64,000 nucleotides of DNA from Aphrocallistes beatrix. Lineage: Eukaryota; Porifera; Hexactinellida; Sceptrulophora; Aphrocallistidae. Both the position numbers and the translations under genes were made by a program. This document shows, in pieces, positions 10,422 through 64,000 of this stretch. A model generated the notes under the pieces. The model searched no databases and was not told the DNA's origin. It was given only the letters and a program-made list of their open reading frames with translations. The stretch lies in assembly GCA_963281255.1 (NCBI GenBank), contig OY725493.1, positions 3,193,857 to 3,257,856 of the forward strand. Reading direction: 5' to 3'. The first letter of the stretch is position 1. Every line of letters starts with the position of its first letter.

Positions 10422-13334
10422 TTGATCACTCAAGTATTTGATACCTATTTTGTTTTATTGGCTTATAACGTAATGCCCAACAAGTGTTCTGCAGCAGGAT
10501 GCCGAAGCAACTATGCAGGAGAATCTTATACTCCAGTTTTCAAACTCCCGACTTGTCCACCTGACTTGGTCAATCAGTGGTTGCGAGCACTCTCCAGAGA
10601 AGGTATTGAAGACCTGAAGAACATATATGTCTGTGCGAAACATTTTCTTCCCGAAGACATCGAGACCAATTTCTCAATACCTCAACTGGATGGATCCGTT
10701 TTGGAAATTCAGCGAACTATTCCCAAATTACGTAAAAACGCAATCCCCAGAGTCCTCCCTAACTGTCCCAGTTACTTATCTTCATCTTCACATTCTAAAC
10801 CACAGCGATTAGACCGTTCAGCCCGGGATGATAAGCTATTCTTTATAGCTGTAGAACAGAGTTTAGGAGAATTTCGGCTTGAAGAAGAACAATATAAAGT
10901 AACCACGCTACAAGAATTAGTGTCTAAACGAAAACCATTCGATTTGCCTAAACAGCGGACTAGTTGGTCCACCGATGCTACAAGTCTACATTTCATCAAG
11001 CCCTGTATCATGAACAACAGTATTTTTATTGCTCGTTCGTTAACAATAACTGATACACTACACACTATTGGATGTCGTGATGGTCAAAACATTTTGCTAT
11101 CCTTACCTACTATCAACGATATACGGCACATTGATATTTTATTGGAAGAACTTGATCAATCATCTACCACCGCCAAGTCTTCAGATATCTTTCTAGAACT
11201 CGCTAATGCTTCGTTCCAACACCATGTTAATGAAGCAACCAGACACATACGACGCGCTATTGAGTTGCTCATTGCTTCACCAGATAATGATTCGACTGAT
11301 CAGCTACATGAATATTTAGTACGTCTTCAATTCATCCTATGTCAATTGGAAAATTCATTAATATCCAAACATACACGTAAGTATGATATTGAAACTCTTA
11401 TTGTTGCACTTAAATGTCAACTTCCATCACCAATTGGTTATAAATTTCTACAATCCCTAGACTGTCTCTCTCTTCCACATCATTCCACACTTAATCGCCT
11501 GTACTCCAATTTTGGTTTGGATAATGAGTTTATCAACTATCTCAAACAATCTACTAAAGAATTCAACAATTGGGAACGTAATGTTATAATTCATGTTAAG
11601 TCAACTTTTACATATAAAGGTGGTCGGATATTGGGGTCTTCATTGAATCCTAATGACCCTGCTAAAACAGTTTTCGCTTTCATGGTCTCTAGTTTATCTA
11701 GAAAATGGTCAACGATTGTTCGCTTACTTCCTTGTACGAACTTCTCGGCTACCGAACTCCTCCCTACAATTAAATCTGTCATTGAAGATGTTGAGTCGTG
11801 TGGACTTTTCGTCCAAGTCCTGTGTACGGATAACTATCCAATGAATGTAAATATTTTTAAATTATTATCGCCAACGCATACCTTGCACCCTATTGTTCCC
11901 CATCCAAATGATGCCAACCGACCTCTGTTTTTATTATTTGATTTCGTCCATATTATCAAGTCTGTGCGTAACAACTGGCTAAACCAGAAGGACTACAATA
12001 AAACATTTATCTATCCTAACTTTGAGGACTTTTGTATTACAAACAGTGCAATCCTTGAAGATGTTCGACTTCTAAATAAAGACGACCAGCACTCGGTTGC
12101 CAAATTAGCCCCAAAATTGACTTCTAAATCTTGCTGGCCATCAACTTTTGAGCGACAAAATGTTAATTTAGCTCTAAGAATATTTGATGATTCTACAGCT
12201 GCTGCTTTAAACCTTGTGCATCTATCACGACAAATCTCAACCAACTCTCAAACAGCAGACTTTATCTCGACTATATGTAAAGTATGGAAAATTTTCAATA
12301 TCAATACTCCCAATAAAGGTATTCTATTAAAGGACGATTTTTCTAAGCCGTTATCTTCCAACGATCCTAGATTCAGTTTTCACAAACGTGTTATTAAATG
12401 GACCGAATGTTGGAAGGCTCTTCCTTCAAAAAATGGAAAACTAAGCTCCCAAACATTCACAAGTTTCCGCCATTCTTGTATTGCACTATCTTTGATTGTA
12501 AACCATCTTACCCAAAATTGCGGTTTTTCATATGTTCTTTCCTCATTTTTGCAAAACGACCCCCTTGAACATCACTTTGGAATCTACAGAATGATGTCAG
12601 GTGCTCAATACCATGTAAGCTTTTGTCAGATATTGGAAACCGAACGTAGATTGAAGTTACCGAGTATTCTTAAATTATTTTCAAGAAAAAGTGACAAGGA
12701 TAAAACATCGTTGAAGGAATTTTTAGACACATGTTCACCCTCTTGTTACACCGAGTCTATTTCTTCTTTAAATCTTGACAGCTATATGACAACTATCCAA
12801 GATTATTCAGAAATTGAATTACATCCGCCAATTCTTCAGGCATTATCTTTTATAGCAGGGTATGCCGTACACGTGTATTACAAGCATTCTAGAAAGTGCA
12901 CAACCTGTCTCTCCCTCCTCACAGAAATAAAAGATATGGAATTTGAGGAACCATCTGACTCGAAATATAAACTTATTCAAATTATCGATCGAGGTTCACT
13001 CAAATGGCCTAGCAACTCTGTCATCGAAGCTATTGTCACAGTGTGGAAAGTTATTTCGTCGATCGAGAACAACCTAACCTTAATGGATAATTTTATAACT
13101 GGACCTTCAAGGAGTATATTAGTGAGCTTGTCAACTACCATAATAGAAAACGAATATGCAGAGTTCTGGAGAGGAGTATGTAAAGATTGTGGTATACTCA
13201 GATGGAATATATTAGCCAAACTGCTAACTTCTACTTCTAACTGCATCCTTTCTAATAAAGTTAAAAACTTGAATGCCCTACAAGCAGATAAGACAGACAA
13301 TACTAGAAAGTTAAAGAAATTGAAACCTAACTAA
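10422..13334 (+). CDS. THAP-domain P-element transposase
   Basis: A 970-codon open frame; the true start is probably Met18 (10473), because the THAP zinc finger begins directly with MPNKCSAAGC. The C2CH finger uses the two Cys of CSAAGC and the Cys and His of YVCAKHF; it binds the element's DNA in this family. The middle and C-terminal regions follow P/THAP9-type transposases: a VLCTDNYPMN segment near residue 467, FDFVHIIKSVRNNWL near residue 505 (family Asp-Pro-His-like block) and DPLEHHFGIYRMMSG near residue 714. The catalytic DDE residues are inferred from family position. The length is close to THAP9 (about 900 aa). There is no intron, stop or frameshift, unlike Drosophila P, which needs splicing. 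aataaa at about 13493 could serve for polyadenylation. Confidence 0.93.
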   Translation: MITQVFDTYFVLLAYNVMPNKCSAAGCRSNYAGESYTPVFKLPTCPPDLVNQWLRALSREGIEDLKNIYVCAKHFLPEDIETNFSIPQLDGSVLEIQRTIPKLRKNAIPRVLPNCPSYLSSSSHSKPQRLDRSARDDKLFFIAVEQSLGEFRLEEEQYKVTTLQELVSKRKPFDLPKQRTSWSTDATSLHFIKPCIMNNSIFIARSLTITDTLHTIGCRDGQNILLSLPTINDIRHIDILLEELDQSSTTAKSSDIFLELANASFQHHVNEATRHIRRAIELLIASPDNDSTDQLHEYLVRLQFILCQLENSLISKHTRKYDIETLIVALKCQLPSPIGYKFLQSLDCLSLPHHSTLNRLYSNFGLDNEFINYLKQSTKEFNNWERNVIIHVKSTFTYKGGRILGSSLNPNDPAKTVFAFMVSSLSRKWSTIVRLLPCTNFSATELLPTIKSVIEDVESCGLFVQVLCTDNYPMNVNIFKLLSPTHTLHPIVPHPNDANRPLFLLFDFVHIIKSVRNNWLNQKDYNKTFIYPNFEDFCITNSAILEDVRLLNKDDQHSVAKLAPKLTSKSCWPSTFERQNVNLALRIFDDSTAAALNLVHLSRQISTNSQTADFISTICKVWKIFNINTPNKGILLKDDFSKPLSSNDPRFSFHKRVIKWTECWKALPSKNGKLSSQTFTSFRHSCIALSLIVNHLTQNCGFSYVLSSFLQNDPLEHHFGIYRMMSGAQYHVSFCQILETERRLKLPSILKLFSRKSDKDKTSLKEFLDTCSPSCYTESISSLNLDSYMTTIQDYSEIELHPPILQALSFIAGYAVHVYYKHSRKCTTCLSLLTEIKDMEFEEPSDSKYKLIQIIDRGSLKWPSNSVIEAIVTVWKVISSIENNLTLMDNFITGPSRSILVSLSTTIIENEYAEFWRGVCKDCGILRWNILAKLLTSTSNCILSNKVKNLNALQADKTDNTRKLKKLKPN

Positions 13335-39734: not shown

Positions 39735-42719
39735 ATGGCAATGACAGAAGAAAACGCTCCTTGGTATCATACAAATTTGAGTCGTAGTCGTGCTGAGGAG
39801 ATGCTTGTTCAAGCTGAAAAGAATGGAGCATTTATTGTGAGAGCAAGTGAAAGTATTAATGGTGCTTATGTTTTATCCGAATTTTATAATAATAGAGTTC
39901 ATCATTACCGAATTCTTCCTTCTGACGAAGGCTATTTTATTGAGTGTCCAGGTAGCACTTCATTGCAATACTTTGAGTGGTTGAGAGATTTAGTCGATTT
40001 TTATGGAAAGCCCAAGCGAGGATTGGTGTGTGAACTTACTTATGCAGTTGAACTTGATGATGATGATGATGATGATGATGATGCAGAATCTAGCACATTG
40101 GAATCAAATGTAAAATTTTTTAATGCATTGTCGAATAGAATCCATCAATCAAATCCTGATCAAGAGTTAGAGAAGCAATTTCGAGAATATTTTTCGCGGC
40201 ATTTATTGACTGATTCACGGAAGTTTATTTTCGATGAAAAACCCGAAATGTTCTACCGTTTATTTGAGAATGACATATCCAATGTATTTTCTTCTATTGA
40301 CATACTACAAAAACGCCTATTGTATGCGCATGAATTACTCTCTTTAGCTTTGGGAAGCAATGATGAGTCAAATTCTTTGAGCAAAATCTCTCTGATTTCT
40401 TCACAAAAAGATTTCTTGTTTACAAATTCTGTATTACTTAATACCACGGAACTGATATCTAAAACTGTATCAACAGCGGACAAAGTATTTAAACAGCTCA
40501 GTGCAGAATCGTTATCTCAAGATATCTATAAAATAAGTAAAAACGATCCCAGTAGTATTATTTCGGATCCCAATGTTGATTTAGGAATTGATGTATTTGA
40601 AGTGCTTTCAGGTATCAAATTATCCAAAACTACTATACAAGTGAATACATCGGAGGGTAATTTTGTAATTCAAAGGAGTTCAAATAAACAGAAATTATTA
40701 TGTGTTGATTTAATTCAGCTTATTAAGAACCAAAACCAACCCCTTTGCTTAACTATTGTCCATAAACAGGGAGAGAATATAAATCTGTCTTTTCAGACTT
40801 TGCATCTTCGTGAAAGATTTTGCGATGTCATAATGGTAATGATGAATAAGCACAACTTTAATCTTGCTAAGGAATCTATATCTCTTTTTACTGGAACGTG
40901 GAACATGGGTGAAGCAACGCTTCCAGATACGATAGAATCCTGGTTAATCGGAAAAGGTACAGGGATGAATCTCCAAGGTTACGAAAGAAAAAAATATGAT
41001 TTATATTTAATTGGAGTACAAGAGAATACATTGTTACTCAGAATCCAATCAACCGATTGGCCTTCCAAAATGCGAAATATTATATCAAGCATGAATAAAA
41101 TAGATTATAAAATAATTGCTTTTGAACACTTTTGGCACATTGGTTTAGTTGCAATAATTAAAGCTGATCTCCATAAGAGAGTTAGTAATATACAGCAGAC
41201 AAATGTGAAAACTGGACTTGGAAAAATTAACGTTGGTACAATTGTGGGAAATAAAGGAGCTGTGGGTATATCCTTTTGTATCGATAAAACATCTTTTCTT
41301 TTTATTAACTGCCATTTGACTTCAGGTCATGAACAGAAAAGGTTAGAAAAACGAAGGGCAAATTATCGCGATATAATGAAGAATCTAATATTTAAGTCGA
41401 CTTTCCCTCATTGCGATGTCACCAATCAATTTAATTATGTCTTTTTTATGGGTGATTTAAATTACCGCTTAGATTTGGATTTTGAGACCATTTTAGAGAG
41501 AATTTCTGAATCAGATTTTGATTATCTGAAACAATTTGATCAATTAAGAACCGAAATCTGTAAGAATAATGCATTTTATGCATTTGATGAGGCACCGATC
41601 CGTTTCGCCCCCACTTATCGTTATGCCCGTGGCAGCAGGACTAGTTATCATATTGTTAAAAAAAAACCTGGAAAGAATAGAATTAATGTGCCTTCATATT
41701 GTGATAGAATTCTGTTTAAATCTTATCCTAATAGCCCCCTCCTGGCAACATCATATGGATGTACAGATGATCTATTCACTAGTGATCACTCACCTGTATA
41801 TGCTACATTTTTATTAGCGATTCAGACCCCGTTAATTTCTAAATACTCTTCATCTACAGCAAATCTTAATCCCTCCATATCTATTCGTTTTGAAGAATTT
41901 GAGGCCTTTATTACCAGAACAAATCCTCATGAGATGTTTTATATTCAATGCTTTGGCAATTGTTTTGAGGGTATTCGAAGAAGTAAACAATGTTCGACTG
42001 TTAACGAGGTTAATCGTAAATCTAACGATGTTATCGCAAAATGGACTCCATCTGAACTTCAAGAACTCATTATTTCAGTTAATAATGATCAAGATTTCCT
42101 TATGCAACAATCAATTTTTATACAAGTAAAATGTTCTGGTGGAGATGATGACACTTTTGGCGAAGCTCTTATATCCTTAGGTGAATTTTTGGATATATCA
42201 ACTCAAAAGTTTAGTAAAACGCTGACGTATCAAACTTATCCAGTTGGTAGAATAACTGGTAAATTGATTATAGGCGATCCCACACAAAATTATAATAATA
42301 TCAATGAATCTAAACTTGAAACTTTTAGAAGGATAGATATTGTATATTCTTCTGGAAGGGAACACTTTAGTGAAGATTTAGATCATTCAAGATCGGTTAT
42401 ACGTCAGTCGAATAGTAATTTCAGTTCTTCTAAATCTTTTAAACAAACTTCAAATGCCCACAAAGTAGATTTGGCACATTCTTTGCCTATTGATGAGACG
42501 ATTGATTCATTACAAAACACAGATTTAATATCTTTTCTTAAAAAATATAATCTAGGAAATTATTCTGAAAAGCTCATCAAAGCAGGATTTCGAGATACCG
42601 TACAGCTTTACTTTCTTGATGAAAAATATCTTGATAGTATGGGCATAACTGGTGATGATGGAAAAAAATTATATCTACTTGCTCAATTTATAAGTAATTT
42701 TTTTACTCCAGTTAAATAA
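39735..42719 (+). CDS. INPPL1: SHIP-type phosphatidylinositol 5-phosphatase (SH2, IPP5c, C2, SAM)
   Basis: 994 aa. SH2 domain at residues 10-104, with FIVRASES at 33-40 (Arg36 for phosphotyrosine). A run of nine Asp follows at 108-116. A helical and PH-like middle region leads to the 5-phosphatase domain from about 385: FTGTWNMG, a LIGVQE motif, GNKGAVGISF, NCHLTSG, MGDLNYRLDL near 572 and TSDHSPVYATF near 682, which hold the catalytic and Mg-binding residues. A C2-like region spans about 715-855 and a C-terminal SAM domain about 920-988. SHIP enzymes remove the 5-phosphate of PI(3,4,5)P3 at the membrane downstream of receptor tyrosine kinases; the SAM domain is the SHIP2 (INPPL1) layout rather than SHIP1. 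The proline-rich tail of vertebrate SHIP is short or absent. The gene is uninterrupted by introns. Confidence 0.95.
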   Translation: MAMTEENAPWYHTNLSRSRAEEMLVQAEKNGAFIVRASESINGAYVLSEFYNNRVHHYRILPSDEGYFIECPGSTSLQYFEWLRDLVDFYGKPKRGLVCELTYAVELDDDDDDDDDAESSTLESNVKFFNALSNRIHQSNPDQELEKQFREYFSRHLLTDSRKFIFDEKPEMFYRLFENDISNVFSSIDILQKRLLYAHELLSLALGSNDESNSLSKISLISSQKDFLFTNSVLLNTTELISKTVSTADKVFKQLSAESLSQDIYKISKNDPSSIISDPNVDLGIDVFEVLSGIKLSKTTIQVNTSEGNFVIQRSSNKQKLLCVDLIQLIKNQNQPLCLTIVHKQGENINLSFQTLHLRERFCDVIMVMMNKHNFNLAKESISLFTGTWNMGEATLPDTIESWLIGKGTGMNLQGYERKKYDLYLIGVQENTLLLRIQSTDWPSKMRNIISSMNKIDYKIIAFEHFWHIGLVAIIKADLHKRVSNIQQTNVKTGLGKINVGTIVGNKGAVGISFCIDKTSFLFINCHLTSGHEQKRLEKRRANYRDIMKNLIFKSTFPHCDVTNQFNYVFFMGDLNYRLDLDFETILERISESDFDYLKQFDQLRTEICKNNAFYAFDEAPIRFAPTYRYARGSRTSYHIVKKKPGKNRINVPSYCDRILFKSYPNSPLLATSYGCTDDLFTSDHSPVYATFLLAIQTPLISKYSSSTANLNPSISIRFEEFEAFITRTNPHEMFYIQCFGNCFEGIRRSKQCSTVNEVNRKSNDVIAKWTPSELQELIISVNNDQDFLMQQSIFIQVKCSGGDDDTFGEALISLGEFLDISTQKFSKTLTYQTYPVGRITGKLIIGDPTQNYNNINESKLETFRRIDIVYSSGREHFSEDLDHSRSVIRQSNSNFSSSKSFKQTSNAHKVDLAHSLPIDETIDSLQNTDLISFLKKYNLGNYSEKLIKAGFRDTVQLYFLDEKYLDSMGITGDDGKKLYLLAQFISNFFTPVK

Positions 42720-54155: not shown

Positions 54156-54512
54156 TGCATTAGCTCGAATTGTTATGTGTCGATAGCTCGAATTTAGCAT
54201 GTTGTCGATAGCTCGACTCTGTTTTTAAGTATGTTGTCGATAGCTCGACTCTGTTTTTAAGTATGTTGTCGATAGCTCGACTCCGTTTTGTGTATGTTGT
54301 CGATAGCTCGACTCCGTTTTTAAGTATGTTGTCGATAGCTCGACTCTGTTTTTAAGTATGTTGTCGATAGCTCGACTCTGTTTTTAAGTATGTTGTCGAT
54401 AGCTCGACTCCGTTTTGTGTATGTTGTCGATAGCTCGACTCCGTTTTGTGTATGTTGTCGATAGCTCGACTCCGTTTTGTGTATGTTGTCGATAGCTCGA
54501 CTCCGTTTTACA
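54156..54512. repeat. Left MULE terminal array, about 11 iterons
   Basis: Units alternate between two types: gtcgatagctcgactctg followed by tttttaagtatg, and the same core followed by ttttgtgtatg. The outermost unit is diverged (agctcgaattgttatg). Confidence 0.9.
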
Positions 54513-54880
54513 TAAGTTCGGCACACCGGACAAGTCTGATTCAATTCCTCTATTCTCTCGCTGCATTCTGCACAACAATTAGCGTGCTTACAAGGTAGAA
54601 ATACCCAAGTTGTTGTCCGTGGCCTCAGACATACAACACAAATATTCTCCACTACTTGAATCTCGCTTTCATTGTCTGAAGTCTCTGACTCATCAGTATC
54701 AGATAATTCGATTCCTGCTTCTGAAGTAAAGGTACTATCAATAGTGTTGGTCATTGCATTTAGATACTGCCAAGGAGTGAACTCGCCATGTCTGAACTTT
54801 TCCTTAGTAACTTCGCGTTGTTGAGCCTTTAGAACGTACTTAGATTTCCTCGCCCTAGAAATGCTATGGCCTTGTCTCAA
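54320..54880 (-). pseudogene. RING-finger C-terminal segment of the MULE protein
   Basis: 186 open codons. A C3HC4 RING is clear: CVVCLRPR, then CKHANCCAEC, then CPVC, with spacing normal for E3-ligase-type RING domains. Downstream of the RING the frame runs into the terminal iterons and encodes a repetitive tail (KRSRAIDNIHKTESSYRQHT type); because units are 31-32 bp the frame rotates through them. It is in the same frame as the transposase segment 54905-55666, separated by one stop codon. Confidence 0.8.
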
Positions 54881-54904
54881 TCTTCCTAATTCGTTATCTA
54901 TGTC

Positions 54905-55666
54905 TTATATTATATTGTTCAGAGCTGTTAGAAAATTCCATACTCTTGGATGAGGAGTTTTAATGATGGATTTGAGCTTTGCATGGTAGCTTTCCGCAGC
55001 ATTATTGGTAGTAATTTCAGCTTCATAGATAGATAGTTCCTCTGGATCTATTTGAGTAATCCACCTCTTCTTGAAGTATTTCTGAAGTTGCTCGAATTTG
55101 CCTGATTCTAGATTTGCAAGATCCGGTACTTGGAGGAATGCATAGGTTGGACGAATTAAACTTGCTGGGAGAAATGGTATTGCCATGAGATTTCTTATGA
55201 ATTTGGCAGTTTCAGGATTAGCATGAAAATTCTGAACAAGGCCGAGCTTCTGAGTTTTGGCCCAGATACGTTGGGTAAAGTGAAACCAACATCCCTGATT
55301 TTTAATGGCGGGATAAATTTCTTTCATAGAATTTCGCGGCGCTGGTTCCCAGTCAGAAATAGAGATTTTCGGTATGAAATCTGGAATTAGAGAATGGATC
55401 TTAGCTATTATTGCAGTATAGAGTTCTTGTTCCTTAGAGGTCATTAAACAATGTATTGCTGGGAGTGCATGTCTATCAATTACCACGAATATTGTCCATA
55501 ATTGGGAGAATTGGGCTGGCACTGTATAAAATGTCCCATCATATTGAATTTTGGAAATTTCTGATAAGTAATTCTTCATGTGTTGAGAATAAAAGACAAC
55601 AGCAGTATGGTTATCAGTCGTGACGGTAAATTTGTGGTGCTTTGCAAAAGTAGATTCTGGCAACAT
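54905..55666 (-). pseudogene. MULE transposase segment
   Basis: 253 open codons. YDGTFYTVP near residue 41 has the first catalytic Asp position, ISDWEPAPRNSM then GCWFHFTQRIW near residues 103-135 the second Asp and the conserved CxxHxxQ-like block, and TTNNAAESYHAKL near residue 227 the glutamate region. This is the MULE DDE domain layout. It is the middle of a longer protein: the FLYWCH part lies upstream in a different frame, and the RING part follows after one in-frame stop. Confidence 0.9.
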
Positions 55667-55677
55667 AACTGAGAATT

Positions 55678-56058
55678 CTATAGCTGTAAGGGGATCTTAG
55701 GTTGCAATCTTCTCCTAGAACGGTACATAGAAGACTCGCACTCATTGAAAGAAATTTCAGTTGCAAACAGACTAGTTCTTGTTTCGTCATCGAAAATCTT
55801 CCTTAAATTATCTTGAGTACTTTCCGCCATTTTCTTGCATTTAGTTTTCAATTCATACACTCCTGATTTGTACTCCTCAATGCCATGGTTATGATTTGAA
55901 TTGGGATATATCAAATTAGTTTCTAACTTTAGTTTAGCTGTCCCTTTACACCCATTTTTTGATAAAACACATCTGAGGTATGTTGTATTTTCTTTCACTT
56001 TATATTTAGAATACTTAAACCCATCGGTTGTTGTAAGAATTTTCCCATTACTACGCAT
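55678..56058 (-). pseudogene. FLYWCH-type zinc-finger N-terminal segment
   Basis: 126 open codons beginning MRSNGKILTTTDGFKYSKY. LRCVLSKNGCKGTAKL and the later HNHG give the Cys-Cys-His-His pattern of FLYWCH/WRKY-like fingers that bind MULE ends. A frameshift near 55680 separates it from the transposase frame. Confidence 0.78.
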
Positions 56059-56880: not shown

Positions 56881-57043
56881 ACAGGCATTTGAAGCTGGAA
56901 AAGATGGGTCAAAAAGTGTGAACAAAAATAATACATTTAAAATTTGAAGTCAGAATTTTTTTAGAATAAGTTCAGCAGAAAATTAGGCTATGTCTATGGT
57001 TTATTAAAAAGTGGGGTGTATACTTTAAGTTTATTTGACTGAT

Positions 57044-57606
57044 CATGGCCTACTTAATATACGGCTATATATGTCACCGAGAAGGCTACAAAACGAAGAG
57101 GCCAGTTTTAACAAAGTCAAATTTCAATTAGACTGATAAATCAAAAACCGCTTCCGATAGACATTTGAAATGTATTATTACCATATACAAACATTATATC
57201 AGAGTATCCAATTCCGCTGTCAAAAATTTGATATGTCATCATGTGATTCCGCAATAGGCTCTTTTTAGAGCGGAAAATGTTGCTGTTCTAGCTCATAATA
57301 AACATCATTATCTGCATTTCTAATGCTTGATTTTTTGATGGAGCAACAATAGGTAGACCTCAAGTCAAAAAATCTGAAAATTTTAGTTGGAATGTCTATG
57401 CATTCCTCAGTTGCTATGGAAACAAAAAATTACATGTTTAAGCCATAACTCGAAAAGTATAGATCGTAGACACTAAAAAATTATACTATTTAATCCGCAA
57501 ACTATTACTTCCTATATGAGAATAATACTATTCACATGTCTATTTTCAATAAGTTGTTATCTAGGATTTTGTCGCATCACATTACTTCTCTATAGATCGT
57601 GATAAA
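57044..57606. repeat. PAL-A-like half element adjoining the array
   Basis: Starts CATGGCCTACTTAATATACGG. It then follows one arm of PAL-A loosely (atcaaaaaccgc, accatatacaaacatt, gttgctatggaaac, cttcctatatgag against cttcctattaagcg). The other arm is not in the window; the 1,054-bp array begins where the centre would be expected. Confidence 0.55.
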
Positions 57607-57656
57607 AACGTTTCGTCGAGAATGGAATGTATATTTTAAACTGATTCTAAAAATAA

Positions 57657-58379
57657 CTCGACGGAAGATGCACGGGGGCTGAAAAGATCCTTCCGCGGGC
57701 TCATTGGGAAAAGCGCAGAGGGACCCCTAAAGAAGCCGCTACTTACTGCAAGAAGGACGGACACTGGCGAGAAAGAGGACTCATGTCCGAAGAACGAGTC
57801 TCTAAGAAGCGCGCTCGAGATACCGCCTTTGAAGAGGCAAAGACGCATGGAGACATCAAACGATTTTGCATGGATAACATCGCGGATATCCAATGGGCAC
57901 AGAAGGCCGCAGCCTACCTGCCATCTTATGAGGGACGCCGCGAAGTTATCTGGCTGTACGGAGCTAGTGGAGTTGGAAAGTCCACCACCCCCTGGAAGTA
58001 CCTCAAGAAGCTTGGACACGGGGTGTTCATCAAGAAGCCCCACACCAAGTTTCACGAGGGATACCTCGGAGAACCAGTCGTCATCTGGGATGAGTACAGC
58101 TCTGACATGCCCCTCGGTGACTTCCTCCACCTCACTTCAACCATCCCAACGAAAGTTGAAGTCAAAGGGGCCGCGATGCCCTGGGACTGCCGGCTGCTCG
58201 TCATTACAAGCAATGAGTCACCTTTTGAGAACTATTGCCAGGCTCGTGAAAAGAACGCTGATAAAGACACCGCTTTTAGAAGAAGATTTAAGAAGTATTA
58301 TCTCGATGAAGAAACTTCTTACGAAGATATTGAAAAAATATTAGATAGCCATATTAGTGTACTGAATGATAAGATATAA
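57657..58379 (+). CDS. rep: CRESS-DNA virus Rep-like protein, helicase part (copy 1)
   Basis: The open frame runs from 57657; the first ATG is 57783, giving 198 aa. The in-frame stretch before the ATG holds TYCKKDG with the Tyr codon at 57744, matching endonuclease motif III of CRESS Rep proteins. From the ATG: Walker A GASGVGKST (60-68), Walker B VVIWDEYS (99-106), a PTKVEVKG motif B-prime (122-129), motif C LLVITSNESP (138-147) and an Arg-finger-like RRRF (166-169). This is a superfamily 3 helicase that unwinds DNA during rolling-circle replication. The N-terminal motifs I and II (metal-binding HUH) are not found in any plus frame between origin and motif III. Copy 1 has no origin upstream in the window. 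Probably a defective or endogenised Rep. Confidence 0.88.
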   Translation, partial: LDGRCTGAEKILPRAHWEKRRGTPKEAATYCKKDGHWRERGLMSEERVSKKRARDTAFEEAKTHGDIKRFCMDNIADIQWAQKAAAYLPSYEGRREVIWLYGASGVGKSTTPWKYLKKLGHGVFIKKPHTKFHEGYLGEPVVIWDEYSSDMPLGDFLHLTSTIPTKVEVKGAAMPWDCRLLVITSNESPFENYCQAREKNADKDTAFRRRFKKYYLDEETSYEDIEKILDSHISVLNDKI

Positions 58380-58439
58380 ATTAAATAGTTAGAAGGCAAT
58401 CTTCCCTATATTTCCGATTAAAAGCGAAGGTTGGGGGGT

Positions 58440-58464
58440 CCGGGGGGGCTTGCCTACCCCCCGG
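58440..58464 (+). other. GC-rich hairpin after rep (repeated in every unit)
   Basis: An 8-bp stem CCGGGGGG / CCCCCCGG with a 9-nt loop, about 60 bp after the rep stop. It recurs at 59494, 60548, 61602, 62656 and 63710. Function unknown; it could be a terminator-like or second structural element. Confidence 0.7.
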
Positions 58465-58525
58465 CATGGCTACTGCTTGCAGTTGCCTTAAGTTACAAGA
58501 CAGAGCGGCGCCCCGCCGGCCAACG

Positions 58526-58558
58526 ACAGATGTCAGTGTAGTATTACCTGACATCTGT
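58526..58558 (+). promoter_or_regulatory. CRESS-type replication origin stem-loop (unit 1)
   Basis: A perfect 11-bp stem, ACAGATGTCAG and CTGACATCTGT, around an 11-nt loop holding TAGTATTAC (58539-58547). In circoviruses and nanoviruses Rep nicks this nonanucleotide between TAGTATT and AC. It lies between one rep copy and the next. Confidence 0.9.
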
Positions 58559-58710
58559 GGAGCTATTTTCTGTGGAACTATTTTATTTAACACAGGAGAT
58601 GACGTTGACCATATATGGACAGAACATGCGTCGATCACGCTGTATATTGGTAACTATGGCAACGTTTCGTCGAGAATGGAATGTATATTTTAAACTGATT
58701 CTAAAAATAA

Positions 58711-59433
58711 CTCGACGGAAGATGCACGGGGGCTGAAAAGATCCTTCCGCGGGCTCATTGGGAAAAGCGCAGAGGGACCCCTAAAGAAGCCGCTACTTAC
58801 TGCAAGAAGGACGGACACTGGCGAGAAAGAGGACTCATGTCCGAAGAACGAGTCTCTAAGAAGCGCGCTCGAGATACCGCCTTTGAAGAGGCAAAGACGC
58901 ATGGAGACATCAAACGATTTTGCATGGATAACATCGCGGATATCCAATGGGCACAGAAGGCCGCAGCCTACCTGCCATCTTATGAGGGACGCCGCGAAGT
59001 TATCTGGCTGTACGGAGCTAGTGGAGTTGGAAAGTCCACCACCCCCTGGAAGTACCTCAAGAAGCTTGGACACGGGGTGTTCATCAAGAAGCCCCACACC
59101 AAGTTTCACGAGGGATACCTCGGAGAACCAGTCGTCATCTGGGATGAGTACAGCTCTGACATGCCCCTCGGTGACTTCCTCCACCTCACTTCAACCATCC
59201 CAACGAAAGTTGAAGTCAAAGGGGCCGCGATGCCCTGGGACTGCCGGCTGCTCGTCATTACAAGCAATGAGTCACCTTTTGAGAACTATTGCCAGGCTCG
59301 TGAAAAGAACGCTGATAAAGACACCGCTTTTAGAAGAAGATTTAAGAAGTATTATCTCGATGAAGAAACTTCTTACGAAGATATTGAAAAAATATTAGAT
59401 AGCCATATTAGTGTACTGAATGATAAGATATAA
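58711..59433 (+). CDS. rep: Rep-like helicase, copy 2
   Basis: Same as the copy at 57657-58379; ATG at 58837. This copy does have an origin upstream (58526-58558). About 245 bp separate the origin from the motif III Tyr, roughly the space a full endonuclease domain needs, but all three plus frames there contain stops or lack HUH motifs. Confidence 0.88.
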   Translation, partial: LDGRCTGAEKILPRAHWEKRRGTPKEAATYCKKDGHWRERGLMSEERVSKKRARDTAFEEAKTHGDIKRFCMDNIADIQWAQKAAAYLPSYEGRREVIWLYGASGVGKSTTPWKYLKKLGHGVFIKKPHTKFHEGYLGEPVVIWDEYSSDMPLGDFLHLTSTIPTKVEVKGAAMPWDCRLLVITSNESPFENYCQAREKNADKDTAFRRRFKKYYLDEETSYEDIEKILDSHISVLNDKI

Positions 59434-59579
59434 ATTAAATAGTTAGAAGGCAATCTTCCCTATATTTCCGATTAAAAGCGAAGGTTGGGGGGTCCGGGGG
59501 GGCTTGCCTACCCCCCGGCATGGCTACTGCTTGCAGTTGCCTTAAGTTACAAGACAGAGCGGCGCCCCGCCGGCCAACG

Positions 59580-59612
59580 ACAGATGTCAGTGTAGTATTA
59601 CCTGACATCTGT
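59580..59612 (+). promoter_or_regulatory. CRESS-type origin stem-loop (unit 2)
   Basis: Identical stem and TAGTATTAC loop to 58526-58558. Confidence 0.9.
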
Positions 59613-59764
59613 GGAGCTATTTTCTGTGGAACTATTTTATTTAACACAGGAGATGACGTTGACCATATATGGACAGAACATGCGTCGATCACGCTGTATA
59701 TTGGTAACTATGGCAACGTTTCGTCGAGAATGGAATGTATATTTTAAACTGATTCTAAAAATAA

Positions 59765-60487
59765 CTCGACGGAAGATGCACGGGGGCTGAAAAGATCCTT
59801 CCGCGGGCTCATTGGGAAAAGCGCAGAGGGACCCCTAAAGAAGCCGCTACTTACTGCAAGAAGGACGGACACTGGCGAGAAAGAGGACTCATGTCCGAAG
59901 AACGAGTCTCTAAGAAGCGCGCTCGAGATACCGCCTTTGAAGAGGCAAAGACGCATGGAGACATCAAACGATTTTGCATGGATAACATCGCGGATATCCA
60001 ATGGGCACAGAAGGCCGCAGCCTACCTGCCATCTTATGAGGGACGCCGCGAAGTTATCTGGCTGTACGGAGCTAGTGGAGTTGGAAAGTCCACCACCCCC
60101 TGGAAGTACCTCAAGAAGCTTGGACACGGGGTGTTCATCAAGAAGCCCCACACCAAGTTTCACGAGGGATACCTCGGAGAACCAGTCGTCATCTGGGATG
60201 AGTACAGCTCTGACATGCCCCTCGGTGACTTCCTCCACCTCACTTCAACCATCCCAACGAAAGTTGAAGTCAAAGGGGCCGCGATGCCCTGGGACTGCCG
60301 GCTGCTCGTCATTACAAGCAATGAGTCACCTTTTGAGAACTATTGCCAGGCTCGTGAAAAGAACGCTGATAAAGACACCGCTTTTAGAAGAAGATTTAAG
60401 AAGTATTATCTCGATGAAGAAACTTCTTACGAAGATATTGAAAAAATATTAGATAGCCATATTAGTGTACTGAATGATAAGATATAA
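59765..60487 (+). CDS. rep: Rep-like helicase, copy 3
   Basis: ATG at 59891. Translation identical to copy 1, including Walker A, Walker B and motif C. Confidence 0.88.
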   Translation, partial: LDGRCTGAEKILPRAHWEKRRGTPKEAATYCKKDGHWRERGLMSEERVSKKRARDTAFEEAKTHGDIKRFCMDNIADIQWAQKAAAYLPSYEGRREVIWLYGASGVGKSTTPWKYLKKLGHGVFIKKPHTKFHEGYLGEPVVIWDEYSSDMPLGDFLHLTSTIPTKVEVKGAAMPWDCRLLVITSNESPFENYCQAREKNADKDTAFRRRFKKYYLDEETSYEDIEKILDSHISVLNDKI

Positions 60488-60633
60488 ATTAAATAGTTAG
60501 AAGGCAATCTTCCCTATATTTCCGATTAAAAGCGAAGGTTGGGGGGTCCGGGGGGGCTTGCCTACCCCCCGGCATGGCTACTGCTTGCAGTTGCCTTAAG
60601 TTACAAGACAGAGCGGCGCCCCGCCGGCCAACG

Positions 60634-60666
60634 ACAGATGTCAGTGTAGTATTACCTGACATCTGT
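60634..60666 (+). promoter_or_regulatory. CRESS-type origin stem-loop (unit 3)
   Basis: Identical to 58526-58558. Confidence 0.9.
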
Positions 60667-60818
60667 GGAGCTATTTTCTGTGGAACTATTTTATTTAACA
60701 CAGGAGATGACGTTGACCATATATGGACAGAACATGCGTCGATCACGCTGTATATTGGTAACTATGGCAACGTTTCGTCGAGAATGGAATGTATATTTTA
60801 AACTGATTCTAAAAATAA

Positions 60819-61541
60819 CTCGACGGAAGATGCACGGGGGCTGAAAAGATCCTTCCGCGGGCTCATTGGGAAAAGCGCAGAGGGACCCCTAAAGAAGCCG
60901 CTACTTACTGCAAGAAGGACGGACACTGGCGAGAAAGAGGACTCATGTCCGAAGAACGAGTCTCTAAGAAGCGCGCTCGAGATACCGCCTTTGAAGAGGC
61001 AAAGACGCATGGAGACATCAAACGATTTTGCATGGATAACATCGCGGATATCCAATGGGCACAGAAGGCCGCAGCCTACCTGCCATCTTATGAGGGACGC
61101 CGCGAAGTTATCTGGCTGTACGGAGCTAGTGGAGTTGGAAAGTCCACCACCCCCTGGAAGTACCTCAAGAAGCTTGGACACGGGGTGTTCATCAAGAAGC
61201 CCCACACCAAGTTTCACGAGGGATACCTCGGAGAACCAGTCGTCATCTGGGATGAGTACAGCTCTGACATGCCCCTCGGTGACTTCCTCCACCTCACTTC
61301 AACCATCCCAACGAAAGTTGAAGTCAAAGGGGCCGCGATGCCCTGGGACTGCCGGCTGCTCGTCATTACAAGCAATGAGTCACCTTTTGAGAACTATTGC
61401 CAGGCTCGTGAAAAGAACGCTGATAAAGACACCGCTTTTAGAAGAAGATTTAAGAAGTATTATCTCGATGAAGAAACTTCTTACGAAGATATTGAAAAAA
61501 TATTAGATAGCCATATTAGTGTACTGAATGATAAGATATAA
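60819..61541 (+). CDS. rep: Rep-like helicase, copy 4
   Basis: ATG at 60945. Translation identical to copy 1. Confidence 0.88.
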   Translation, partial: LDGRCTGAEKILPRAHWEKRRGTPKEAATYCKKDGHWRERGLMSEERVSKKRARDTAFEEAKTHGDIKRFCMDNIADIQWAQKAAAYLPSYEGRREVIWLYGASGVGKSTTPWKYLKKLGHGVFIKKPHTKFHEGYLGEPVVIWDEYSSDMPLGDFLHLTSTIPTKVEVKGAAMPWDCRLLVITSNESPFENYCQAREKNADKDTAFRRRFKKYYLDEETSYEDIEKILDSHISVLNDKI

Positions 61542-61687
61542 ATTAAATAGTTAGAAGGCAATCTTCCCTATATTTCCGATTAAAAGCGAAGGTTGGGGGG
61601 TCCGGGGGGGCTTGCCTACCCCCCGGCATGGCTACTGCTTGCAGTTGCCTTAAGTTACAAGACAGAGCGGCGCCCCGCCGGCCAACG

Positions 61688-61720
61688 ACAGATGTCAGTG
61701 TAGTATTACCTGACATCTGT
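61688..61720 (+). promoter_or_regulatory. CRESS-type origin stem-loop (unit 4)
   Basis: Identical to 58526-58558. Confidence 0.9.
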
Positions 61721-61872
61721 GGAGCTATTTTCTGTGGAACTATTTTATTTAACACAGGAGATGACGTTGACCATATATGGACAGAACATGCGTCGATCAC
61801 GCTGTATATTGGTAACTATGGCAACGTTTCGTCGAGAATGGAATGTATATTTTAAACTGATTCTAAAAATAA

Positions 61873-62595
61873 CTCGACGGAAGATGCACGGGGGCTGAAA
61901 AGATCCTTCCGCGGGCTCATTGGGAAAAGCGCAGAGGGACCCCTAAAGAAGCCGCTACTTACTGCAAGAAGGACGGACACTGGCGAGAAAGAGGACTCAT
62001 GTCCGAAGAACGAGTCTCTAAGAAGCGCGCTCGAGATACCGCCTTTGAAGAGGCAAAGACGCATGGAGACATCAAACGATTTTGCATGGATAACATCGCG
62101 GATATCCAATGGGCACAGAAGGCCGCAGCCTACCTGCCATCTTATGAGGGACGCCGCGAAGTTATCTGGCTGTACGGAGCTAGTGGAGTTGGAAAGTCCA
62201 CCACCCCCTGGAAGTACCTCAAGAAGCTTGGACACGGGGTGTTCATCAAGAAGCCCCACACCAAGTTTCACGAGGGATACCTCGGAGAACCAGTCGTCAT
62301 CTGGGATGAGTACAGCTCTGACATGCCCCTCGGTGACTTCCTCCACCTCACTTCAACCATCCCAACGAAAGTTGAAGTCAAAGGGGCCGCGATGCCCTGG
62401 GACTGCCGGCTGCTCGTCATTACAAGCAATGAGTCACCTTTTGAGAACTATTGCCAGGCTCGTGAAAAGAACGCTGATAAAGACACCGCTTTTAGAAGAA
62501 GATTTAAGAAGTATTATCTCGATGAAGAAACTTCTTACGAAGATATTGAAAAAATATTAGATAGCCATATTAGTGTACTGAATGATAAGATATAA
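61873..62595 (+). CDS. rep: Rep-like helicase, copy 5
   Basis: ATG at 61999. Translation identical to copy 1. Confidence 0.88.
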   Translation, partial: LDGRCTGAEKILPRAHWEKRRGTPKEAATYCKKDGHWRERGLMSEERVSKKRARDTAFEEAKTHGDIKRFCMDNIADIQWAQKAAAYLPSYEGRREVIWLYGASGVGKSTTPWKYLKKLGHGVFIKKPHTKFHEGYLGEPVVIWDEYSSDMPLGDFLHLTSTIPTKVEVKGAAMPWDCRLLVITSNESPFENYCQAREKNADKDTAFRRRFKKYYLDEETSYEDIEKILDSHISVLNDKI

Positions 62596-62741
62596 ATTAA
62601 ATAGTTAGAAGGCAATCTTCCCTATATTTCCGATTAAAAGCGAAGGTTGGGGGGTCCGGGGGGGCTTGCCTACCCCCCGGCATGGCTACTGCTTGCAGTT
62701 GCCTTAAGTTACAAGACAGAGCGGCGCCCCGCCGGCCAACG

Positions 62742-62774
62742 ACAGATGTCAGTGTAGTATTACCTGACATCTGT
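62742..62774 (+). promoter_or_regulatory. CRESS-type origin stem-loop (unit 5)
   Basis: Identical to 58526-58558. Confidence 0.9.
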
Positions 62775-62926
62775 GGAGCTATTTTCTGTGGAACTATTTT
62801 ATTTAACACAGGAGATGACGTTGACCATATATGGACAGAACATGCGTCGATCACGCTGTATATTGGTAACTATGGCAACGTTTCGTCGAGAATGGAATGT
62901 ATATTTTAAACTGATTCTAAAAATAA

Positions 62927-63649
62927 CTCGACGGAAGATGCACGGGGGCTGAAAAGATCCTTCCGCGGGCTCATTGGGAAAAGCGCAGAGGGACCCCTAA
63001 AGAAGCCGCTACTTACTGCAAGAAGGACGGACACTGGCGAGAAAGAGGACTCATGTCCGAAGAACGAGTCTCTAAGAAGCGCGCTCGAGATACCGCCTTT
63101 GAAGAGGCAAAGACGCATGGAGACATCAAACGATTTTGCATGGATAACATCGCGGATATCCAATGGGCACAGAAGGCCGCAGCCTACCTGCCATCTTATG
63201 AGGGACGCCGCGAAGTTATCTGGCTGTACGGAGCTAGTGGAGTTGGAAAGTCCACCACCCCCTGGAAGTACCTCAAGAAGCTTGGACACGGGGTGTTCAT
63301 CAAGAAGCCCCACACCAAGTTTCACGAGGGATACCTCGGAGAACCAGTCGTCATCTGGGATGAGTACAGCTCTGACATGCCCCTCGGTGACTTCCTCCAC
63401 CTCACTTCAACCATCCCAACGAAAGTTGAAGTCAAAGGGGCCGCGATGCCCTGGGACTGCCGGCTGCTCGTCATTACAAGCAATGAGTCACCTTTTGAGA
63501 ACTATTGCCAGGCTCGTGAAAAGAACGCTGATAAAGACACCGCTTTTAGAAGAAGATTTAAGAAGTATTATCTCGATGAAGAAACTTCTTACGAAGATAT
63601 TGAAAAAATATTAGATAGCCATATTAGTGTACTGAATGATAAGATATAA
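62927..63649 (+). CDS. rep: Rep-like helicase, copy 6
   Basis: ATG at 63053. Translation identical to copy 1. It is the last complete gene before the window ends. Confidence 0.88.
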   Translation, partial: LDGRCTGAEKILPRAHWEKRRGTPKEAATYCKKDGHWRERGLMSEERVSKKRARDTAFEEAKTHGDIKRFCMDNIADIQWAQKAAAYLPSYEGRREVIWLYGASGVGKSTTPWKYLKKLGHGVFIKKPHTKFHEGYLGEPVVIWDEYSSDMPLGDFLHLTSTIPTKVEVKGAAMPWDCRLLVITSNESPFENYCQAREKNADKDTAFRRRFKKYYLDEETSYEDIEKILDSHISVLNDKI

Positions 63650-63795
63650 ATTAAATAGTTAGAAGGCAATCTTCCCTATATTTCCGATTAAAAGCGAAGG
63701 TTGGGGGGTCCGGGGGGGCTTGCCTACCCCCCGGCATGGCTACTGCTTGCAGTTGCCTTAAGTTACAAGACAGAGCGGCGCCCCGCCGGCCAACG

Positions 63796-63828
63796 ACAGA
63801 TGTCAGTGTAGTATTACCTGACATCTGT
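63796..63828 (+). promoter_or_regulatory. CRESS-type origin stem-loop (unit 6)
   Basis: Identical to 58526-58558. The next unit starts at 63931 and runs out of the window. Confidence 0.9.
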
Positions 63829-64000
63829 GGAGCTATTTTCTGTGGAACTATTTTATTTAACACAGGAGATGACGTTGACCATATATGGACAGAACATGCG
63901 TCGATCACGCTGTATATTGGTAACTATGGCAACGTTTCGTCGAGAATGGAATGTATATTTTAAACTGATTCTAAAAATAACTCGACGGAAGATGCACGGG

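What the first reader, a model, noticed from the sequence alone, without database searches (positions are those of the whole stretch)
57607..64000. Tandem array of complete ssDNA-virus-like replicon units in animal-type chromosomal DNA
Seen: a 1,054-bp unit repeated head to tail six times and more, each with one Rep helicase gene and one origin stem-loop, and no capsid gene. Known: endogenous circovirus-like Rep genes are usually single, decayed copies, while rolling-circle replication makes head-to-tail concatemers. Inference: either a concatemer integrated recently, or the unit became a satellite repeat that still carries an open helicase gene. A capsid-less Rep-plus-origin unit of about 1 kb has the size of nanovirus or alphasatellite components.
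Basis: partly seen in the sequence, partly recalled or inferred. Interest (0 to 1): 0.92.

Follow-up and report, generated by a model that had tools for sequence, protein, structure and literature searches.

The report
Viral repeat array inside sponge transposon
A chromosome, most likely of a glass sponge, carries a long run of near-identical copies of a small virus-derived unit (a cut-short replication gene plus a replication origin), lodged in the middle of a short mobile element, which gives a clean look at how such viral DNA gets into animal chromosomes and multiplies there.

Summary
From 57607 to the window end a 1,054-bp unit repeats without mismatch, with a Rep-type helicase frame and a TAGTATTAC stem-loop. 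The genome, most likely a glass sponge's, shows more. About 18 units are assembled: 8.2 forward, a 200-N gap, 9.9 reversed. 563-bp inverted repeats (562/563 alike) and a 7-bp target duplication flank them. Those repeats are arms of a palindromic ~1.09-kb element common in this genome (8 of 8 two-armed solo copies with perfect 7-bp duplications). Six paralogous empty sites were read. The array starts where that element's second arm should. The units are not complete replicons: HUH motifs I and II were not found. Best reading: a concatemer of a defective CRESS replicon was captured in the palindromic centre of a transposon, then mirrored by strand exchange between the arms. Tandem endogenous CRESS DNA is known (plants, Giardia, carp); the transposon nesting and mirrored layout are the new part. 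The palindrome is unproven, because the turn lies in the gap.

The parts
57037..57043 (.). 7-bp target site duplication GACTGAT, left copy (right copy at C7:3271263-3271269)
   Evidence: one ACTGAT at 6 of 6 paralogous empty sites read (one of them, L055, has an extra GAT behind it)
57044..57573 (+). Left arm (about 530 bp) of a palindromic MITE-like element, 5'-CATGGCC end
   Evidence: inverted partner within C7:3270700-3271262
57574..57606 (+). Central spacer of the solo element with about the first 6 bases of its second arm; array begins right after
   Evidence: 8 of 8 solo copies shown run on into the second arm at this point
57607..58660 (+). Unit 1 (1,054 bp)
58661..59714 (+). Unit 2
59715..60768 (+). 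Unit 3
60769..61822 (+). Unit 4
61823..62876 (+). Unit 5
62877..63930 (+). Unit 6
63931..64000 (+). Start of unit 7; array goes on outside the window to C7:3260076 (+), 200 N, then C7:3260277-3270699 (-)
57657..58379 (+). Truncated Rep frame of unit 1 (240 aa open, first ATG 57783; repeats every 1,054 bp): HUH motif III YCKK, Walker A GASGVGKS, Walker B VVIWDE, motif C TSN; HUH motifs I and II not found (motif names recalled)
58526..58558 (+). Origin-like stem-loop, 11-bp perfect stem, TAGTATTAC at 58539-58547; by periodicity also at 59580, 60634, 61688, 62742, 63796

Best explanation
A defective, capsid-less CRESS-type replicon (origin plus a Rep lacking the first part of its nicking domain) existed as head-to-tail concatemers, the usual product of rolling-circle or recombination-dependent replication. 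One concatemer was joined into the palindromic centre of a ~1.09-kb terminal-inverted-repeat element in a chromosome of what is most likely a glass sponge, most simply at a break where the palindrome extruded. Strand exchange between the inverted arms then copied everything inside (inner arm, spacer, junction, array) to the other side, giving the mirrored layout and nearly identical arms. The block now sits as a homogeneous, satellite-like array that should be unable to nick its own origin, because HUH motifs I and II are missing. SHOWN at assembly level: array, both chromosomal junctions, arms, target duplication, empty sites, truncation. INFERRED: concatemer origin, break at the palindrome centre, arm-to-arm copying, inertness.
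For: Exact 1,054-bp periodicity and ~18 assembled units with 1 substitution in 19,037 bases. Both junctions at the same unit phase and the same arm base. Arms 562/563 identical, against 92.7-98.1% in 8 solo elements. Each composite arm is as far from the majority of 16 solo arms as those are themselves (3.05 and 3.25%; solo 1.82-4.87%), yet the pair shares 15 non-majority bases (3 of them in no solo arm) and differs at 1; solo pairs share 2-12 and differ at 9-36. The single difference lies 67 bases from the outer end, as expected if exchange began near that end and ran inward. 7-bp target duplication, as in 8 of 8 two-armed solo copies. Empty sites. Entry point at the start of the second arm. 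GC 0.48 against 0.35 in window 1-56000. PF02407 matched only at positions 54-81 of 82.
Against: The orientation change lies in a 200-N gap, so the palindrome is not seen in continuous sequence, and a crossover between arms (first rival) explains the arm pattern as well. No free relative was found: 6 of 6 scans of viral contigs gave no locus (with the unit, 71 with the other Rep locus), so the replicon is inferred. The array edges are not at the nonanucleotide, so Rep-directed integration is not indicated. PF02407 is 23.6 bits, under its 26-bit cut-off, and PF00910 is unspecific (rings in 14 of 14 control genomes). Near-perfect identity could partly be assembly consensus.
Confidence: 0.55

Rival explanations
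1. No palindrome exists. The array has one orientation, but recombination between the inverted arms has flipped the interior on one of two haplotypes; the assembly shows the left side of one haplotype and the right side of the other, joined over the gap.
For: The turn lies in a 200-N gap. Both halves stop inside the array at arbitrary phases. A crossover near the outer end of the arms also predicts identity inward and difference only outward.
Against: Needs a heterozygous inversion and a discordant choice by the assembler. The predicted other junction (array next to the second arm) was not met: the 18 unit hits found all lie in this block.
Confidence: 0.27
2. The whole mirrored block, over 20 kb with arms, moved here as one transposon, so the viral array is cargo of a host TIR element. 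(Not exclusive of the best explanation: it concerns the order of events.)
For: Intact arms on both ends, perfect 7-bp duplication, six empty sites read.
Against: The same picture arises if a short element inserted first and the array entered later. No second copy and no donor with near-identical arms was listed: the next best arm match is 96% (best 40 of 532 candidates scored). Cut-and-paste would leave no donor, so this is weak evidence.
Confidence: 0.2
3. Helper-dependent satellite replicon: origins flank whole units, so circles could be released when a complete Rep is present, making the array a reservoir.
For: Perfect stem-loop in the units; open helicase frame in 17 of 18 copies (one has CAA to TAA); unit identity.
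Against: No free circle known here; the only other clear Rep locus found (C10, L043) is distant and broken. Identity is explained equally by recent origin.
Confidence: 0.1
4. Assembly or amplification chimera between a free circular contaminant and a solo element.
For: Near-perfect unit identity; gap in the middle; no reads seen.
Against: The array is reached without gap from the correct left and right halves of one empty site with a matching 7-bp duplication.
Confidence: 0.06
5. The Rep array is the autonomous member of the MITE family and its Rep mobilises it.
For: Same arms and same duplication length.
Against: 7-bp duplications and TIRs point to a DDE-type transposase (general knowledge); HUH motifs I and II were not found; Rep DNA was detected only in this block.
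Confidence: 0.02

Closest known systems
GRD elements of Nicotiana (geminivirus-related DNA; PMC5014472, section 3 and passages read)
   Same: Multiple direct repeats of a truncated rep plus an origin-bearing intergenic fragment in a nuclear genome
   Different: Plant, begomoviral, degenerate; no transposon arms or target duplication mentioned in what I read
EGV1 of Dioscorea (PMC5014472, passages read)
   Same: Tandem repeats of an endogenous CRESS unit with stem-loop; authors suggest arrays over 23 kb
   Different: 2.6-kb unit, genetically distinct copies, plant
Tandem CVe of cypriniform fish (PMC6372831, passages read)
   Same: Tandem endogenous circovirus-type DNA in animals
   Different: Described there as full-length tandem genomes, not truncated Rep units inside a TIR element
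10-kb tandemly repeated endogenous CRESS element in a long-read protist assembly, Giardia as I read the passage (PMC7493932, passages read)
   Same: Long-read-resolved tandem integrated CRESS DNA
   Different: Protist; some endogenous elements there carry both Rep and Cap
Rep-bearing TIR element of Tuber melanosporum (PMC3198968, section 8 read)
   Same: Rep-like gene within terminal inverted repeats
   Different: 37-bp TIRs, transposase ORFs, no obvious target duplication, dispersed copies, not an array
LINE-associated carnivore CVe (PMC6372831, passages read)
   Same: Circovirus-derived DNA tied to a host transposon
   Different: Retrotransposon, duplicated copies, no TIR element

Membership tests
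Endogenous CRESS-DNA viral element | CRESS Rep domains (HUH + SF3) recognisable | tested here: met
   PF00910 42.8 bits; PF02407 positions 54-81, 23.6 bits, under its 26 cut-off; PDB 2hwt/6h8o residues 54-83, E 0.0016, and 9pqq Rep residues 94-216, E 0.0031. The C-terminal piece alone had no Pfam hit
Endogenous CRESS-DNA viral element | Joined to host chromosomal DNA | tested here: met
   Gap-free joins to left and right flank in the assembly; reads not seen
Nanovirus component or alphasatellite | Full-length Rep with HUH motifs I, II, III | tested here: not met
   Motifs I and II not found by strict patterns in six frames; look-alikes of a looser scan lie outside the Rep frame
Nanovirus component or alphasatellite | About 1-kb circle with TAGTATTAC stem-loop | tested here: inconclusive
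   Unit 1,054 bp and loop present; a free circle was not testable
Palindromic MITE family of this genome (outer element) | About 530-bp arms, CATGGCC ends, 7-bp target duplication | tested here: met
Helitron | No TIRs and no target duplication; helicase of another superfamily (recalled) | tested here: not met
   Long TIRs and 7-bp duplication; PF00910-type helicase with Walker A, B and motif C as in Rep
GRD-like tandem endogenous unit | Tandem truncated rep plus origin, nuclear | tested here: met
   geminiviral ancestry not tested

The most novel reading that the evidence does not exclude
A host DNA transposon has taken up a tandem viral Rep-origin array as cargo and become a giant (over 20 kb) palindromic element that moved as one piece, so that viral concatemers and terminal-inverted-repeat transposition together create a new satellite block in an animal genome.
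Probability: 0.2. Interest if true: 0.78.

Novelty: new variant of a known kind. Interest (0 to 1): 0.62.

Why it matters
It gives base-level junctions, empty sites and an internal clock for how CRESS DNA enters an animal chromosome: at the centre of a palindromic transposon, as a concatemer, with later mirroring. Endogenous Rep sequences are mostly truncated and degraded (PMC3198968, passage); this array is nearly free of mutation, so steps that are normally erased can be read. It also ties what is most likely a glass sponge to CRESS replicons, and a second, decayed Rep locus suggests repeated contact.

Tried and rejected
Relatives in viral contigs: 6 scans, 0 loci, so no Rep tree could be built and no family below CRESS is claimed. 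Structure prediction was not run. An upstream exon carrying HUH motifs I and II was looked for by pattern in six frames and by Pfam, PHROGs and PDB searches of the 45-aa ORF at 58599-58733 (no Rep match; one weak Pfam match to OpgC_C, E 0.051); not found. A host origin of the 58590-58740 stretch was rejected: 19 of 19 matches lie in the array. The 9 of 27 PF00910 matches outside the array (at most 23.2 bits) and the weak PF02407 match on C18 (17.2 bits) were not followed. Paper searches: searches gave nothing useful (80 and 81 listed 10 of 146 and 10 of 22); 53, 55, 56, 74 led to the papers cited (55 listed 20 of 210). Candidates for longer family members (5 loci) were compared with the arm only: L050 has about 2.8 kb inside one arm, read as another insertion; the other four showed no large interior between two full arms. 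Rows left out of counts: solo copies L031 and L037 (truncated second arm); L065 is the same locus as L059.
Full report
What is there. The window is C7:3193857-3257856 of a 100.5-Mb genome in 28 contigs. From 57607 the sequence repeats every 1,054 bases with no mismatch to the window end; lags between 100 and 4,999 that are not multiples of 1,054 reach at most 0.297 identity. Beyond the window the array runs forward to C7:3260076 (8.17 units), meets 200 N, and resumes reversed at C7:3260277-3270699 (9.89 units) with one substitution, at C7:3265145. That change turns CAA into TAA in one unit. In total 19,037 bases of array are assembled, with 18 helicase copies: 18 of 18 DNA hits and 18 of 18 protein hits lie in this block. 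Within the 91,144 bases examined the 200-N run is the only gap.

Host. Contig C28 (17,996 bp) is mitochondrial. It has an ORF that I read as atp9 (the label is from recall) and a 523-codon cox1 with AGA codons, of which for instance residues 33 and 100 stand where the best PDB match (8ugh) has serine, while some others stand at other residues. Hexactinellid mtDNAs keep atp9 and read AGR as serine, a change not seen in demosponges, and cox1 of Aphrocallistes vastus is 1,569 bp (PMC2267718, passages read); the frame here is 1,569 bp without its stop. The host is therefore most likely a glass sponge; the species is not known.

The unit. The helicase frame gives PF00910 at 42.8 bits, a family that also rings in 14 of 14 control genomes (over the cut-off in 6), so it is not specific by itself. 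Walker A GASGVGKS, Walker B VVIWDE and motif C TSN are present. Upstream the same frame, open from 57657, carries the motif-III stretch around YCKK, which matches only positions 54-81 of the 82-position Viral_Rep model, at 23.6 bits, under the 26-bit cut-off; Viral_Rep rings in none of the 14 controls. The same stretch matches residues 54-83 of PDB 2hwt/6h8o (E 0.0016), named replication-associated protein there and a nanovirus Rep nuclease domain by my recall, and the longer piece matches another Rep, 9pqq (E 0.0031). Strict motif I and II patterns were not found in six frames; a looser scan gave three look-alikes of each, none in the Rep frame. Stops close the Rep frame at 58696-58708 and the other two forward frames at 58691 and 58734. 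So the Rep lacks roughly its first 53 residues, where the metal-binding HUH motif belongs. The origin is a perfect 11-bp stem with TAGTATTAC in the loop; a GC-rich hairpin lies about 60 bases before it. The unit has 48% GC against 35% in window 1-56000; PMC7493932 (passages read) reports that the free CRESS viruses studied there exceed their hosts' GC and that integrated copies have less.

The setting. The 563 bases left of the array (57044-57606) recur inverted to its right at C7:3270700-3271262 with one mismatch, and both array edges are at the same unit phase. Outside them stands GACTGAT on both sides. The 563-bp sequence is one half of a repeat with 78 matches listed, 2 of them at this locus, after scoring 40 of 532 candidates. 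Ten other loci were read: 8 have both ends, are 1,090-1,100 bp long, begin CATGG, and 8 of 8 have perfect 7-bp duplications; 2 (L031, L037) have a truncated arm and were not scored. In 8 of 8 solo copies shown, the spacer is followed by the second arm; at this locus it is followed by the array. The left flank is itself a repeat. By coordinates 9 of its 18 other match rows (16 places) are followed directly by right-flank sequence (one search scored 40 of 915 candidates, so 9 is a lower bound). Six of these were read: each holds one ACTGAT and no element; in five ACAAC follows at once, in L055 an extra GAT stands between. So the whole of arm-array-arm is an insertion relative to its paralogues, with a 7-bp target duplication.

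Order of events. Each composite arm is 3.05 or 3.25% from the majority of 16 solo arms, within the solo range 1.82-4.87% (the solo arms made the majority, which favours them slightly), but the two share 15 non-majority bases, 3 of them seen in no solo arm, and differ at one; in the 8 solo elements the arms share 2-12 and differ at 9-36. The arms were thus made alike well after the family spread, and the single difference is 67 bases from the outer end. Either one side was copied from the other (break-induced copying or conversion starting in the arm), or a crossover between arms inverted the interior on one haplotype and the assembly shows one side of each. The middle gap prevents a choice. 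With the 1e-9 per site per year quoted for neutral drift in PMC5014472 (section 3), one change in 19,037 bases would be some 50,000 years and one in a 563-bp arm pair under a million years; the sponge rate is unknown, and homogenisation or assembly consensus can hide changes, so these are only orders of size.

How it works. Head-to-tail exact units are what rolling-circle or recombination-dependent replication of a small circle makes (established knowledge of CRESS replicons). I infer that such a concatemer was joined at the centre of the palindromic element, a place prone to breakage when long inverted repeats extrude (general knowledge). The array edge lies about 120 bases from the nonanucleotide, so Rep-directed nicking is not indicated for the integration. 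The present units should not be able to start replication on their own, since the missing HUH motifs are needed to nick the origin; any activity would depend on a protein from elsewhere. The only other clear Rep locus detected, C10:4841339 (PF02407 54.5 bits; 2hwt match E 4e-10), is 24% identical to the unit's helicase piece, has HC where YC is expected, no intact Walker A, and switches frame, so I read it as an older, separate fossil rather than a helper.

Known and new. Tandem endogenous CRESS DNA is on record: GRD and EGV1 in plants (PMC5014472; see also passages of PMC7758297), a 10-kb repeat in a protist (PMC7493932), tandem circovirus genomes in cypriniform fish (PMC6372831). A truncated rep plus origin in direct repeats is the GRD pattern. 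A Rep gene within TIRs is known from Tuber (PMC3198968, section 8). I found no described case of a tandem Rep-origin array in the centre of a TIR element with target duplication and empty sites, nor one in a sponge, in searches of one open-access library, several with capped lists; that is a limited search. A find in the A. vastus genome paper (PMC10282587, passages) gave 0 occurrences of 'virus'.

Limits. No reads were available; copy number, the palindrome and any free circle are untested. The viral collection gave no relative in 6 of 6 scans, so the CRESS family stays open.

Noticed in passing
L043 (G000:C10:4841339-4841566 and downstream): A second, decayed endogenous Rep: nearly full HUH nuclease domain (54.5 bits), broken frame, helicase remnant without intact Walker A; distant from the array's Rep.
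   Followed up: partly
L030, L032-L036, L038, L039 and others: Abundant palindromic MITE family, ~1.09 kb, CATGGCC ends, 7-bp target duplications; transposase source unknown.
   Followed up: partly
L050 (G000:C14:2975900-2985800): A copy of the MITE whose second arm is interrupted by about 2.8 kb of other DNA.
   Followed up: no
54320-56058 (-): Three adjacent ORFs with FLYWCH, MULE transposase and RING-finger domains, about 1 kb left of the insertion; looks like a Mutator-like transposon.
   Followed up: no
10422-13334 (+): 970-aa ORF with THAP and TNP-like RNase H domains, as in P-element-like transposases (recalled).
   Followed up: no
39735-42719 (+): 994-aa uninterrupted ORF with SH2, inositol-phosphatase-type and SHIP C2 domains.
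   Followed up: no
58440-58464 in each unit: GC-rich hairpin (CCGGGGGG/CCCCCCGG) upstream of the origin; role unknown.
   Followed up: no
57636-58130 (-) in each unit: 164-aa antisense ORF (GTG start) over the Rep frame; two pieces had no Pfam hit.
   Followed up: partly
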